DNA of 64,000 nucleotides from Candidatus Nitrososphaera gargensis Ga9.2. GTDB taxonomy: Archaea > Thermoproteota > Nitrososphaeria > Nitrososphaerales > Nitrososphaeraceae. Below the pieces are notes generated by a model. It had not been told where the DNA came from, did no database searches, and saw only the letters and a program-made list of their open reading frames with translations. Made by a program: the position numbers and the translations under genes. Of the stretch, positions 50,256-62,075 are shown piece by piece; the stretch's first letter is position 1, and each line of letters starts with the position of its first letter. The stretch spans positions 2,728,001-2,792,000 of the forward strand of contig NC_018719.1 of NCBI RefSeq assembly GCF_000303155.1. The letters run 5' to 3'.

Positions 50256-50837
50256 TTGGCTGATAGCAAGGGCTACTATGCAGTTCTCGGCGTTTCGGAA
50301 AAAGCCAGCTACAAGGAGATCAGGCATGCCTATCGGCGGCTTGCTCGCAAGTATCATCCTGACAGGAACAACTCTGCCTTTGCTGAAGAGATGATCAAAA
50401 AGATAAACGCCGCGTTTGAAGTGCTGTCTGATGAAACAAAAAGGGCGCAGTACGATAGGAGCGAGTTTGACAGTGCGCCAGAGCCTGAGCCTACGTACGA
50501 GCCAGAGCCGGTGCAGCAGCCAAACAGCCCGGAGCCTTGGAAAATGGCGAACGAAAACGTGGTCGCGGACTTTTTCAATGGGCCGTATTTCCTTGACACG
50601 CCAAAGGGAAGGTTCCACATTATTGTCGAGCCGTCTCTCTGCATGGCGTTTGGCAGCTGCGAGACCCTTGCACCAAAGGTCTTTGTAGTTGAAAAGAACA
50701 AGAGGGTCAACCCCAAGGCGGTAGTGGAGTGCGAGACCTGCGCCGACTATGAAAGGATACACGCCGCAGCTGCCACGTGCCCCACCAAGGCGATCAAGAT
50801 AATCGACCGTTACACGGGCGAACAACTGTACCCGTAG
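50256..50837 (+). CDS. J-domain protein fused to ferredoxin (DnaJ-Fer)
   Basis: Residues 5-68 are a J domain with the HPD tripeptide at 34-36 (KYHPDRN). A Glu/Pro-rich linker follows, and from about residue 110 there is a single-cluster ferredoxin domain (SLCMAFGSC ... ATCPTKAIKI). The start is TTG at 50256. Thaumarchaeal DnaJ-Fer fusions are established and have been attributed to gene transfer from a plastid-type lineage. The J part would recruit DnaK, and the Fe-S part may sense redox state. Two cobalamin genes follow directly. Confidence 0.93.
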   Translation: MADSKGYYAVLGVSEKASYKEIRHAYRRLARKYHPDRNNSAFAEEMIKKINAAFEVLSDETKRAQYDRSEFDSAPEPEPTYEPEPVQQPNSPEPWKMANENVVADFFNGPYFLDTPKGRFHIIVEPSLCMAFGSCETLAPKVFVVEKNKRVNPKAVVECETCADYERIHAAAATCPTKAIKIIDRYTGEQLYP

Positions 50838-50872
50838 TAGACTTAAATTGCCGTGAGAGGGTGCAGCAACCC

Positions 50873-51598
50873 ATGAAGCTTTTCTGTGTTGGATGCGGAC
50901 CCGGCGACCCCGAGCTTCTTACGGTGCGGGCCGTCAACCTGATAAAAAGCGCGGAGGTGGTATTCGCGCCCACTGCAAGGGAGGGCAAGTCAAGCATCGC
51001 GCTTTCAGTTGTTGAAAAATATGTTAGCAAGACGGCCAAGACCGCTAGCCTTGTCTTTCCAATGGTCAAGGACAAAGAGTCGCTCAAGGACTATTGGAAG
51101 AGGAACGCCGACGACATTGCGGCAGCAGTCAGGTCCGGCAAAAAAGTGGTCTACCTTACGGTGGGCGACCCGGCGCTGTACAGCACGTGGATCTATGTCC
51201 ACCGCGAGCTGAAAAGGAACCACAAAGACATTGAAGTTGAAATAGTGCCGGGGATCGCGTCGATGTTTGCCATCGCTGCAAAGGCAGGCATCAGCCTAGC
51301 AGAAGGCGAGGAGACGGTGGCCATAGTGCCGGCGTGCTACGACATGGACAGGGTCAGGCGCACCGCGGCCGCGTGCGACACGGTCATTTTTCTCAAGGAC
51401 GGGCGGTACTTTGACAGCGTGATCGAAATGCTGGGCGAGTCCGGCTTTCCCGATAATGCAAACATTGCGATAGCGCAGGACGTTTCAGATGAGGGCGAAA
51501 TACTTGACGTGAAAAAATTGTCAGAGCTTCGCGGCAAGAAAGGCCCAACTGAAAAGTACTTTTCAATAATGGTGGCAAAGAAAAATGCCAGAGAGTAG
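50873..51598 (+). CDS. cbiL: Cobalt-factor II / precorrin-2 C20-methyltransferase
   Basis: The 241-aa SAM-dependent tetrapyrrole methylase has GCGPGDPELLTVRAVNLIKSA, the PTAREGKS loop, LTVGDPALYSTW and IVPGIASMFA. These fit CbiL/CobI among the class III methylases. It adds the C20 methyl of the corrin ring in cobalamin synthesis. ATG at 50873 is chosen. The next gene (cbiF) overlaps by 14 bases. It lies 35 bases after DnaJ-Fer in the same direction. Confidence 0.93.
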   Translation: MKLFCVGCGPGDPELLTVRAVNLIKSAEVVFAPTAREGKSSIALSVVEKYVSKTAKTASLVFPMVKDKESLKDYWKRNADDIAAAVRSGKKVVYLTVGDPALYSTWIYVHRELKRNHKDIEVEIVPGIASMFAIAAKAGISLAEGEETVAIVPACYDMDRVRRTAAACDTVIFLKDGRYFDSVIEMLGESGFPDNANIAIAQDVSDEGEILDVKKLSELRGKKGPTEKYFSIMVAKKNARE

Positions 51599-52385
51599 TA
51601 ACACCGTATATTTCGTGGGCTCTGGACCGGGCGACCCCGAGCTTATCACGCTCAAGGCCAAAAAGCTGGTAGAGCAGGCAGACGTTATCATTTACTCCGG
51701 CTCGCTCTTTAACCCAAAGAACTTGGAGTATGCAAGAAAGGATGCCAAGCTATACGACGCGGCAGTCATTGACAGGGAAAAGATCTACCAGATCCTCCGG
51801 GATTCTGCAAAGGAGGGCAAGCTTGCGATAAGGTTCCACGATGGCGACCCGGCGCTCTTTAGCACCATTCGCGAACAGATAGACAAGCTCGAAGCTGACG
51901 GCATAAAGTGCAAGGTAGTACCCGGCGTCACTGCGATACTTGGGGCCGCGGCCGACCTCAACCTCGAGCTGACGCTGCCGGGCATCACCCAGACCCTGAT
52001 AGTGACGAGGGCAGAGCTTCGAACACCTGTACCAGCTCGCGAATCAATAGCCGAGCTTGCAAAGCACGGCGCCACGATGGTGTTCTACCTGAGCGTGCAC
52101 CTGATAGGCGACGTTGTCAAGGAGCTGCTAAAGGGTGGCGTCTACACTGAAAATACGCCGGCCGCCGTTGTATACAGGGCGACTTGGGAGGACGAAAAAA
52201 TAATCAAGGGGACGTTAGGCGACATTGCGAAAAAAACAAGGGAAGCAAAAATAATCAAGACTGCGCTGATAATCGTAGGCGACGTGATCGCTCCTGCAAA
52301 ATACGAATATTCCAAGGTGTATGATGCAGGATTCACGCACGGATACAGAAAAGCAGTAGTAAAAGAAGAAGAAAAGAAAGGATAG
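51585..52385 (+). CDS. cbiF: Precorrin-4 / cobalt-precorrin-4 C11-methyltransferase
   Basis: The 266-aa enzyme has GSGPGDPELITLKAKKLVEQAD, YSGSLFNPKNL (CbiF-type), FHDGDPALFST and VPGVTAILGAAADL. Together with CbiL it belongs to the anaerobic-type cobalamin pathway. ATG at 51585 overlaps the upstream gene by 14 bases. The C-terminus is Lys/Glu-rich. Cobalamin synthesis is widespread in ammonia-oxidising archaea. Confidence 0.93.
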   Translation: MPESSNTVYFVGSGPGDPELITLKAKKLVEQADVIIYSGSLFNPKNLEYARKDAKLYDAAVIDREKIYQILRDSAKEGKLAIRFHDGDPALFSTIREQIDKLEADGIKCKVVPGVTAILGAAADLNLELTLPGITQTLIVTRAELRTPVPARESIAELAKHGATMVFYLSVHLIGDVVKELLKGGVYTENTPAAVVYRATWEDEKIIKGTLGDIAKKTREAKIIKTALIIVGDVIAPAKYEYSKVYDAGFTHGYRKAVVKEEEKKG

Positions 52386-52395
52386 GGTAGGGTTT

Positions 52396-52596
52396 TTACG
52401 GTCTTCTCGCCCATAGGCTTACTACTGTAGTGCTGATCGCTGCCCCTGCTGCACCGCTGATGGTTGCAAAGGCCAGAGCCTGATCTATCACTATCGAAGG
52501 CACCCAGTTTGCGATCAGAGGCGCGGCCAGGAACGATAGGAACCCTATTGCAAATCCTATCGCCCCAAATATTGCAAGTACAGGCCCTCTTGCCAT
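52396..52596 (-). CDS. Two-helix membrane protein, 66 aa
   Basis: Two hydrophobic segments (VLAIFGAIGFAIGFLSFLAA and an Ala/Gly-rich second, SGAAGAAISTTVVSL) with a short loop between make a hairpin membrane protein. The C-terminus is WARRP. It follows CdvB by 24 bases on the same strand and is convergent with cbiF. Role unknown; co-transcription with CdvB suggests a division- or membrane-associated function, which is inference. Confidence 0.7.
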   Translation of the reverse strand: MARGPVLAIFGAIGFAIGFLSFLAAPLIANWVPSIVIDQALAFATISGAAGAAISTTVVSLWARRP

Positions 52597-52620
52597 GTCT
52601 TCTCCTCCTCCTTCTCTCTC

Positions 52621-53274
52621 TTACTGTTGATGACTTTCGGTATCGGAGATCCTGAAGCTTCCAGCCGGGATGGATGGGAACTTGTCGTTCACCTTCTGCT
52701 CTGCGACTGCCGACGCTTCCATCATGATCTGGTCGATATCTGCTCCACCGGCGCTGGTGTTGAGCTCGATTCCAACGCTGCTTCCCTGCAGAGACTCCAT
52801 CATTATTCCATTCAGCAGAGTCTGCATGTTGTTTATCTCGCTGTCTGCGCCTGGAACGAACCTTCCAAGGCTCGGCTTGAGGCTCTTTATCGAGGATATC
52901 GCCGGGCCGAGCGCGACCATAGCGTCTCCCATTTCGTGTATCGTTGACAGCCTCATTGATACCTGCTCTAGCGCCATTCTGGCCTGTCCCAGAGTTCTTG
53001 CGATCTTGCGCACTTCTGCAAGCTCGTTTGAGAGCACCTTGGCGCTGTCTGTGTCGTGCCTCTGCATGGCATCGACCACCCTTCGGAACAGCGAGGCGTC
53101 CCTCTCGTTCAGCTTTGTAATCATTGTGTCTAACTTTGATGTCTGCAACTGCAGCTTGTTAACGGCAGTCTCGATCCTTGGCTTGAGCGGGCCCTGCGGC
53201 CTCAGCGACTCTTTGAGTTTCTCGCTGGCGCTTGCCCTACTCTGGTTGCTCCAGTTCTTATCGAAACCAGTCAT
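52621..53274 (-). CDS. cdvB: CdvB/ESCRT-III (Snf7-type) division protein
   Basis: The 217-aa protein has the helical Snf7 core: ETAVNKLQLQTSKLDTMITKLNERDASLF, then a helix pair through AKVLSNELAEVRKIARTLGQARMALEQ, and a Ser-rich MIM-like region. The C-terminal ends with an Asp/Met-rich segment (ADIDQIMMEASAVAEQKVNDKFP). It forms filaments that remodel membranes at the division site with CdvC. It has no N-terminal wing domain. Thaumarchaeota use Cdv proteins for division, often with several CdvB paralogues. Confidence 0.9.
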   Translation of the reverse strand: MTGFDKNWSNQSRASASEKLKESLRPQGPLKPRIETAVNKLQLQTSKLDTMITKLNERDASLFRRVVDAMQRHDTDSAKVLSNELAEVRKIARTLGQARMALEQVSMRLSTIHEMGDAMVALGPAISSIKSLKPSLGRFVPGADSEINNMQTLLNGIMMESLQGSSVGIELNTSAGGADIDQIMMEASAVAEQKVNDKFPSIPAGSFRISDTESHQQ

Positions 53275-60376: not shown

Positions 60377-61177
60377 TTGACGAACAACCCTGTCGCCGTG
60401 TTTGACTCTGGCATAGGCTCGCTCTCGATAATACGGGAGCTAAAGCGTGAGGTGCCAAACGAGGACCTGCTCTACTTTGCAGACAGGGCCCACTTTCCTT
60501 ACGGCAACAAGTCTCACCAGCAGCTGCGCGAGATTATGGTCAATACCATAAACTACCTCAGGCGATACAAGCCAAAACTCGTGGTGGTCGCCTCAAACAC
60601 GCCTTCTGTCCAGGTGCTCGATGAGGTAAGGAGGATGATAACCGACCTCCCTATCATTGGGGTCCGGCCTCCCCTCAAGGAAGCAGCCAGGCTCACAAAG
60701 AAAAAGCACATCGGGATCATGGCCACCGAGGGCACGATAGGAAGCAAGGAGCTGAAGATCCAGATCAGGAGAGAGGTGCCGCAGCACATCCTTGTAACCA
60801 AGTTCAACGCCTCGCCCATAATTGAGCTGATAGAGCACGGCGTCCATCTTGAGAACGAGCGGCGGACGTTTGACATAATATCCCGGGTGCTGGGTGAAGG
60901 CGTGGACGAAAAGATGGACGTCATAACGCTCTCTAGCACCCACCTGCCGTTTGTGAAAACATACCTCAACGCGCTCCTGCCGACAGTCAGATTCGTCGAC
61001 CCAGCGCAGATCGTGGCCAAGGACGTGAGAAAGTTTCTAAAGTTCTACAGGATGGCGAAAAAGAGCGGGACAGGCAAGCTTCAGATCCTCGTGTCGGACG
61101 GCAAGCGCGAGTTTGAAAAGTCGGTGCGGGCTATGGGCATAAGGGAGCCGGTTGAGGAAGTTTTTCTGACCTTTTGA
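60377..61177 (+). CDS. Glutamate-racemase-like protein without catalytic cysteines
   Basis: The 266-aa protein has the glutamate-racemase fold: VAVFDSGIGSLSII (Asp10, Ser11), FADRAHFPYGNKS and two lobes. The two catalytic Cys are replaced: VVASNTPS has Ser73 in place of Cys, and TLSSTHLPF has Ser186-Ser187 in place of Gly-Cys. Substrate-contact residues (YG, NT, TH) are kept. Start is TTG at 60377. With no peptidoglycan, archaea do not need D-glutamate for walls. The protein may bind an acidic ligand or do another reaction. It precedes the cis-prenyltransferase gene by 76 bases. Confidence 0.9.
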   Translation: MTNNPVAVFDSGIGSLSIIRELKREVPNEDLLYFADRAHFPYGNKSHQQLREIMVNTINYLRRYKPKLVVVASNTPSVQVLDEVRRMITDLPIIGVRPPLKEAARLTKKKHIGIMATEGTIGSKELKIQIRREVPQHILVTKFNASPIIELIEHGVHLENERRTFDIISRVLGEGVDEKMDVITLSSTHLPFVKTYLNALLPTVRFVDPAQIVAKDVRKFLKFYRMAKKSGTGKLQILVSDGKREFEKSVRAMGIREPVEEVFLTF

Positions 61178-61253
61178 TACACGATAGTAACACACCACAT
61201 ATATGGAAACACATGATAACAATGCAGTAGAGTAAAAAAGCTGACAGCGAAAT

Positions 61254-62075
61254 ATGGGGCTCCAGACAGATATTGACAAGGGAGGCAGGGCACTTGCGCA
61301 CACATTCCTACAGCTCAGCGGCATCTACTCTTTCTACGAAAAGCGTCTGGAGTCAGAAATTCTAAAGTCGCCTCTGCCAAACCACGTTGCGATAGTGCTT
61401 GACGGCAACAGGAGGTGGGCCAGGTTCCACCTGCTTGATCCGGCCATCGGCCACAACCACGGGGCCGACAAGGCAGAAGAGCTGCTCAACTGGATCCACG
61501 ACATTGGAGTCAAGATTACCACCCTATACATCCTTTCGACGGAGAACCTTGAAAGGAAAGACGAAGAGCTTGAAAACATCTACAAGCTGTTAGAGATCAA
61601 GCTTAAAAAGCTCTACAACGACCAGCGCGTGCACAACCGCAGGATGAAGATAAAGGCGATAGGCGACACCAAACTGCTACCGCGCAAGCTTCAGGAGATA
61701 TTGACAAAGCTGGAAGAGTCAACTGCAGAATATGACTCGATGTTCCTGAACATCGCCATAGCGTACGGCGGGCAGAAAGAGCTTGTCGAAGCGGTAAGGA
61801 AGATAGCGCAGATGGCCAAGGATGGCAAGATCAAAGTTGACGAAATAAACGAAAAGACGATCGAGTCGTGCCTGTACACGTCGCACTTGCCGCAGCCGTC
61901 GCCGGACCTTATCCTGAGGACGTCGGGTGAAAAGAGGCTGAGCGGCTTTTTGATATGGCAGAGCGCCTACAGTGAGCTGATGTTCATGGATGTGTTCTGG
62001 CCAGAGTTCCGCAAGATAGACCTCATGAGGGCAATAAGGACGTACCAGCGCAGGGTGCGCAGGTACGGCAGATGA
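61254..62075 (+). CDS. uppS: Cis-prenyltransferase (UppS-type)
   Basis: The 273-aa enzyme has VAIVLDGNRRWARFH (catalytic Asp), GHNHGADKAEELLNWI, TLYILSTENLERKDEE and RTSGEKRLSGFLIWQSAYSELMF. It elongates farnesyl or geranylgeranyl diphosphate to dolichyl-type polyprenols for N-glycosylation. The first 35 residues are extra, amphipathic and may bind the membrane. It follows the racemase-like gene in the same direction. Confidence 0.95.
   Translation: MGLQTDIDKGGRALAHTFLQLSGIYSFYEKRLESEILKSPLPNHVAIVLDGNRRWARFHLLDPAIGHNHGADKAEELLNWIHDIGVKITTLYILSTENLERKDEELENIYKLLEIKLKKLYNDQRVHNRRMKIKAIGDTKLLPRKLQEILTKLEESTAEYDSMFLNIAIAYGGQKELVEAVRKIAQMAKDGKIKVDEINEKTIESCLYTSHLPQPSPDLILRTSGEKRLSGFLIWQSAYSELMFMDVFWPEFRKIDLMRAIRTYQRRVRRYGR

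What the first reader, a model, noticed from the sequence alone, without database searches (positions are those of the whole stretch)
60377..62075. Glutamate-racemase-like protein with both catalytic Cys changed to Ser, next to cis-prenyltransferase
Seen: ASNT in place of ACNT and SSTH in place of GCTH, with the remaining fold motifs (DSGIGS, FPYGNKS) kept. Known: racemases of this family need two Cys for proton transfer. Inference: it lost racemisation and may bind an acidic amino acid or have been adapted to another reaction, perhaps linked to polyprenol-dependent glycosylation through its neighbour.
Basis: partly seen in the sequence, partly recalled or inferred. Interest (0 to 1): 0.62.

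Follow-up and report, generated by a model that had tools for sequence, protein, structure and literature searches.

The report
Serine-serine version of glutamate racemase
Ammonia-oxidising archaea carry a conserved protein that looks like the bacterial enzyme making D-glutamate, but both of its essential catalytic cysteines are always serines, so the published view that these archaea use it to consume D-glutamate rests on an enzyme that probably does something else.

Summary
The ORF at 60377-61177 is a full-length MurI-type protein with Ser73 and Ser187 in place of the two catalytic Cys. Among 156 distinct relatives aligned, 118 are Ser/Ser, 38 are Cys/Cys and none is mixed. The Ser/Ser proteins form one clade (support 100/99). 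It covers all four amoA-bearing families in the window's order and no other family there. It also includes anammox planctomycetes, a Kaiserbacterium and scattered bacteria, several of which keep a separate Cys/Cys MurI. All other MurI catalytic residues (Asp10, Ser11, Asp36, Tyr42, Thr75, Glu153, Thr188, His189) are invariant in the archaeal branch. dN/dS is about 0.02-0.16, so this is not decay.

The cis-prenyltransferase neighbour is confined to the window's own genus. The ancestral neighbours are a divergent CdvB/ESCRT-III gene and cobalamin methyltransferases. The gene is broken in two, and undetected in a few other, marine archaea, so it is not essential.

A 2025 paper calls this protein a working glutamate racemase; published Cys-to-Ser mutants lose about 1000-fold activity. 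Best reading: an ancient, functional, non-racemase subfamily that keeps the glutamate pocket. Its reaction was not identified. New variant of a known kind.

The parts
60377..61177 (+). MurI-like (glutamate-racemase-fold) protein with Ser73/Ser187 in place of the two catalytic Cys; 266 aa, TTG start
   Evidence: TIGR00067 163.9 bits (cut-off 146.65); AlphaFold2 pLDDT 95.8; Foldseek top hits all glutamate racemases, TM 0.85-0.88
60593..60595 (+). codon TCA, Ser73 (position of first catalytic Cys; motif A-S-N-T-P-S)
60935..60937 (+). codon AGC, Ser187 (position of second catalytic Cys; motif S-S-T-H-L-P)
61254..62075 (+). cis-prenyltransferase (UppS family), neighbour only within this genus
   Evidence: PF01255 E 1.3e-74; adjacency
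52621..53274 (-). CdvB/ESCRT-III-like protein; in the f2, f3 and f9 families it is the immediate divergent neighbour of the Ser-Ser gene
   Evidence: orthologue cluster C2; naming as CdvB from own knowledge (no Pfam hit)
50777..51598 (+). corrin/tetrapyrrole methylase (CbiL-like)
   Evidence: PF00590; cluster C1
51585..52385 (+). corrin/tetrapyrrole methylase (CbiF-like)
   Evidence: PF00590; cluster C1

Best explanation
The protein belongs to an ancient, functional subfamily of the MurI (glutamate racemase) fold. In its common ancestor both acid/base cysteines became serines while the rest of the glutamate pocket was kept. It was present in the ancestor of the amoA-bearing archaea and also occurs in anammox bacteria and sporadically elsewhere. 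Shown here: the Ser-Ser state, its fixation, single clade, purifying selection, retained pocket and distribution. Inferred: it is not an efficient glutamate racemase, because serine hydroxyls are poor carbon acids/bases compared with thiolates. Inferred with less certainty: the two hydroxyls, each next to its old helper (Asp10 for Ser73; Glu153/His189 for Ser187), now act on a glutamate-like dicarboxylic amino acid in a reaction needing no strong thiolate. Examples are a one-sided elimination/dehydration or proton transfer on a substrate with a more acidic alpha-hydrogen, as happened in the proline-racemase superfamily when Cys-Cys became Cys-Thr or Ser-Thr.
For: 118 Ser/Ser, 38 Cys/Cys and 0 mixed among 156 distinct proteins; the patterns used to collect genome relatives do not include either Ser site. 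One clade, 100/99, 35 against 26 sequences. Invariant D10, S11, G12, Y33, D36, P41, Y42, G43, K45, S73, T75, E153, S187, T188, H189 in 43 archaeal orthologues. PMC6927343 reports the essential MurI residues as D7, S8, C70, T72, E150, C181, T182, H183 (H. pylori numbering) and a 1000-fold loss for Cys-to-Ser; all are matched here except the two Cys. dN/dS 0.02-0.16. Families f1, f2, f3 and f9 with archaeal amoA are the ones that carry the gene; f4-f17 lack both. Hosts of bacterial Ser-Ser genes also hold Cys-Cys MurI. Precedent for residue-pair switches: PMC4364671.
Against: No activity was measured. Cys-to-Ser MurI keeps about 0.1% activity (PMC6927343), so slow racemisation is possible. No operon partner names a substrate: neighbours differ between lineages. 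The DAG branch in bacteria changes two pocket residues (S11A, T75A) and seven of 26 archaeal-type sequences have Asn74 to Ile, so the substrate may not be glutamate.
Confidence: 0.6

Rival explanations
1. It is a true pseudoenzyme: a glutamate-fold ligand-binding or regulatory protein (for example a nitrogen-status sensor) with no catalysis, the serines only holding the ligand.
For: Both catalytic thiols absent while pocket residues are invariant; no stable enzymatic operon partner; loss tolerated in some Nitrosopumilaceae.
Against: Both helper residues of the old acid/base pairs (Asp10, Glu153, His189) are also invariant, which a mere binder would not need; no fused or neighbouring effector domain was seen.
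Confidence: 0.25
2. It is a working, if slow, glutamate racemase that lets ammonia-oxidising archaea use D-glutamate, as proposed in PMC12363236.
For: Fold and pocket match MurI; the paper reports co-occurrence with glutamate dehydrogenase and amoA; Cys-to-Ser MurI is not completely dead.
Against: The paper states that N. maritimus GLUR has the necessary catalytic residues, but the orthologue in the genome of matching size (G110) reads VVASNTPSL and TLSSTHLPFL, so both thiols are missing. All 118 members of the subfamily are Ser-Ser. Bacteria that need D-glutamate keep a separate Cys-Cys MurI.
Confidence: 0.12
3. It supplies a missing step of cobalamin synthesis (or of CdvB-linked cell division), explaining its place between these genes.
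For: In all 15 f2, f3 and f9 loci examined it sits beside a divergent CdvB gene, with corrin methylases and CbiT within about 5 kb. CbiJ is not found in archaea (PMC4303638).
Against: In G155 and G163 the gene is a frameshifted pseudogene while CdvB, the corrin methylases and CbiT remain intact. Other archaeal cobalamin makers lack CbiJ too. The fold is not that of a nucleotide-dependent reductase.
Confidence: 0.08
4. It is linked to polyprenol-dependent glycosylation through the adjacent cis-prenyltransferase.
For: Same strand, 77 bp apart in the window; adjacency within 1.5 kb in 11 of 13 loci of the genus.
Against: The neighbour is absent in all other genera and families examined.
Confidence: 0.03

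Closest known systems
MurI / RacE glutamate racemase (TIGR00067, EC 5.1.1.3)
   Same: Fold (TM 0.85-0.88 to solved MurI structures), length, DSG, PYG, NT and TH motifs, and all catalytic helper residues
   Different: Both acid/base Cys are Ser; Gly15 is Ser and Tyr/Phe190 is Leu; separate clade
Proline racemase superfamily (Cys-Cys racemases, Cys-Thr and Ser-Thr dehydratases; PMC4364671)
   Same: Precedent for replacing paired Cys by hydroxyl residues with a change from racemisation to dehydration
   Different: Unrelated fold (DapF-like); only an analogy
Archaeal 'GLUR' of PMC12363236 (mSystems 2025)
   Same: By annotation and distribution the same protein group: glutamate racemase family protein in ammonia-oxidising archaea, absent from non-oxidising Nitrososphaeria
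   Different: That paper treats it as catalytically complete; the sequences here lack both catalytic Cys
Other Asp/Glu racemase superfamily members with altered Cys pairs (arylmalonate decarboxylase, L/D-Asp/Glu racemases with Thr-Cys; own knowledge)
   Same: Same superfamily; catalytic Cys pair altered with altered chemistry
   Different: They keep at least one Cys; this subfamily keeps none

Membership tests
MurI glutamate racemase | Match to the curated family model (TIGR00067) over its cut-off | tested here: met
   163.9 bits against 146.65 for the window protein. Many orthologues fall below it (for example 117.7 bits in G110)
MurI glutamate racemase | Two catalytic cysteines, in (A/G)CNT and (G/A)CTH | tested here: not met
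   Ser73 and Ser187; 118 of 118 subfamily members
MurI glutamate racemase | Other catalytic/substrate residues (Asp10, Ser11, Thr75, Glu153, Thr188, His189) | tested here: met
   Invariant in 43 archaeal orthologues; residue list from PMC6927343
MurI glutamate racemase | Groups within the Cys-Cys MurI clade | tested here: not met
   Ser-Ser and Cys-Cys sequences fall on the two sides of one branch, 100/99
MurI glutamate racemase | Racemises glutamate / supplies D-Glu for peptidoglycan | not testable with these tools
   No assay available; archaea have no peptidoglycan (PMC12363236)
Polyprenol glycosylation partner | Conserved linkage to cis-prenyltransferase | tested here: not met
   Only within the genus
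Cobalamin synthesis enzyme | Retained wherever the cobalamin cluster is retained | tested here: not met
   Pseudogenes in G155 and G163 beside intact corrin methylases and CbiT

The most novel reading that the evidence does not exclude
The Ser-Ser clade is an undescribed enzyme family with its own reaction on a glutamate-like substrate, a near-core function of ammonia-oxidising archaea shared with anammox bacteria, using a serine pair in place of the racemase cysteine pair.
Probability: 0.4. Interest if true: 0.75.

Novelty: new variant of a known kind. Interest (0 to 1): 0.55.

Why it matters
Ammonia-oxidising archaea are among the most abundant organisms on Earth. A 2025 study (PMC12363236) argued that they consume D-glutamate, on the strength of this gene, and counted it in deep-sea D-amino-acid budgets. 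If the gene product lacks both catalytic cysteines throughout the group, that inference and automatic 'glutamate racemase' counts in metagenomes need correction. It also exposes a conserved but uncharacterised protein family with one clear, testable feature, the serine pair.

Tried and rejected
uppS linkage as a functional clue: rejected, confined to one genus. Missing cobalamin step (CbiJ-like): rejected, because the gene decays while the cobalamin genes stay and the bacterial members do not share this context. Decay or sequencing error: rejected by fixation and dN/dS, apart from true pseudogenes in G155 and G163. Solved structure of a Ser-Ser member: none by sequence or fold; all hits are ordinary MurI. 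Bacterial contexts: a membrane protein next door in Staphylococcus (no Pfam hit), DUF362 next door in anammox, a HyuA-like gene next door in Nitrosocosmicus-type genomes; they agree on no substrate. Two early genome searches failed on the 'of' argument and were repeated.

Full report
What is in the window. The window is G000:C1:2728001-2792000 of a 2.83-Mb single-contig archaeon that carries archaeal amoA. The ORF at 60377-61177 encodes 266 aa. It matches PF01177 and passes the glutamate racemase equivalog model TIGR00067 at 163.9 bits. The first catalytic Cys position holds Ser73 (codon TCA) and the second holds Ser187 (codon AGC). AlphaFold2 from 43 orthologues gives pLDDT 95.8. The best solved relatives are all glutamate racemases at TM 0.85-0.88, and none in the PDB is a Ser-Ser protein by sequence.

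Fixation. Orthologues occur in 197 of 300 genomes of the order, all in families f1, f2, f3 and f9. In a set of 61 relatives, archaeal amoA occurs in the same four families, and neither gene occurs in families f4-f17. Every intact orthologue read is Ser-Ser. Over all fetched relatives, 118 distinct proteins are Ser/Ser, 38 are Cys/Cys and none is mixed. The patterns that collected the genome relatives did not include either Ser site, so the sample was not chosen for the serines.

One clade, wider than archaea. The same scan found Ser-Ser relatives in anammox planctomycetes (L151, L154, L155; 45-48% identical) and a Kaiserbacterium (L158). A branch with DAG, ASNAPS and SSTHLPW motifs occurs in a few Staphylococcus species, Bartonella and an alphaproteobacterium, and a plasmid search added Phyllobacterium and Fusobacterium. 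In bacteria it is sporadic: strong matches in 4 of 300 genomes of the Staphylococcus class and 2 of 289 of the Bartonella class. A 61-sequence tree puts all Ser-Ser proteins on one side of a branch with 100/99 support and all Cys-Cys MurI on the other (smaller tree). Staphylococcus and Bartonella hosts keep a canonical Cys-Cys MurI elsewhere, and the anammox genomes keep a Cys-Cys MurI domain fused to a glutamate dehydrogenase. The Ser-Ser gene is therefore an addition to MurI, not its replacement.

What is kept and what changed. In 43 archaeal orthologues the invariant residues are V8 D10 S11 G12 G14 S15 S17 Y33 D36 P41 Y42 G43 K45 P66 S73 T75 E153 L185 S187 T188 H189. PMC6927343, citing Glavas and Tanner, lists D7, S8, C70, T72, E150, C181, T182 and H183 (H. 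pylori) as the essential MurI residues, and reports that Cys-to-Ala abolishes activity while Cys-to-Ser costs about 1000-fold. The subfamily keeps all of these except the two Cys. Other subfamily-specific changes are Gly15 to Ser and Tyr/Phe190 to Leu. The bacterial DAG branch also changes Ser11 and Thr75 to Ala, and seven of 26 archaeal-type sequences change Asn74 to Ile, so substrates may differ between branches. In some Nitrosocosmicus genomes residue 186, just before Ser187, is Cys. It is not at the catalytic position and is not conserved, but an assay should keep it in mind.

Selection. dN/dS between congeners is 0.02-0.16 (YN00, 11 pairs) and the NG86 median is 0.06 (42 pairs). Invariant Ser, never Ala, Gly or Thr, at both sites over this depth suggests the hydroxyls are used. 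The gene is not essential: in G155 and G163 it is broken by frameshifts and stops, and TIGR00067 finds nothing in G143, G156, G165, G166 and G175.

Neighbours. The cis-prenyltransferase lies within 1.5 kb downstream in 11 of 13 loci of the genus, about 3 kb away in a twelfth, and not near the gene in other lineages examined. In all 15 loci of f2, f3 and f9 examined, the gene is divergent from a CdvB/ESCRT-III gene (in three of them seen as its antisense shadow ORF) and lies near two corrin methylases and CbiT. In the window these genes remain 7-10 kb upstream (50777-53274). Because the pseudogenes sit beside intact cobalamin and CdvB genes, the linkage looks inherited rather than a shared pathway. 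In Nitrosocosmicus-type genomes a HyuA-like gene follows, in anammox a DUF362 gene, and in Staphylococcus a membrane protein precedes. These hint at amino-acid or ring-amide metabolism but agree on no substrate.

Relation to published work. PMC12363236 found GLUR throughout ammonia-oxidising archaea and absent from non-oxidising relatives, which agrees with the distribution here. It states that N. maritimus GLUR has the necessary catalytic sites and infers D-glutamate use. The sequences here contradict the first statement at both Cys positions, so the second is unproven. I did not see that paper's figure or its AlphaFold entry directly.

Mechanism. A thiolate-free pocket built for glutamate is unlikely to racemise it efficiently. 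The nearest precedent is the proline-racemase superfamily, where Cys-Cys enzymes are racemases or epimerases and Cys-Thr and Ser-Thr enzymes are dehydratases (PMC4364671). I therefore favour a changed reaction on a related substrate, with a catalytically silent binding protein as the main rival. No tool here can decide between them.

Noticed in passing
L204, L205, L206 (anammox genomes G561, G560, G562): Proteins of about 930 aa that join a glutamate dehydrogenase to a Cys-Cys MurI domain (FACNTVDT ... LACTHYDY) with an insert of about 40 aa before the first Cys motif; apparently the glutamate racemase of these anammox bacteria.
   Followed up: partly
L100 (G155) and L101 (G163): Frameshifted, stop-containing copies of the Ser-Ser gene in two complete Nitrosopumilaceae genomes, beside intact CdvB and cobalamin genes; a few other genomes of the family show no match at all.
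   Followed up: partly
L050/L102 (G444, family f53): An ordinary Cys-Cys MurI in a non-ammonia-oxidising genome of the same phylum, grouping with bacterial MurI; possible transfer or contamination.
   Followed up: no
L081, L082, L087 (Nitrosocosmicus-type genomes): A hydantoinase/oxoprolinase (HyuA)-like gene follows the Ser-Ser gene by about 40-80 bases, then a PRPP synthase and an RNase Z-like gene; assignments by eye, no family search run.
   Followed up: no
window 50256-50837: DnaJ domain fused to a single 4Fe-4S ferredoxin domain (PF00226 + PF13370), directly upstream of the cobalamin methylases; conserved in the genus.
   Followed up: no
L155:4821-5885 and L154:4815-5879: A DUF362 protein with a twin-arginine-like signal lies directly downstream of the anammox Ser-Ser gene.
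   Followed up: no
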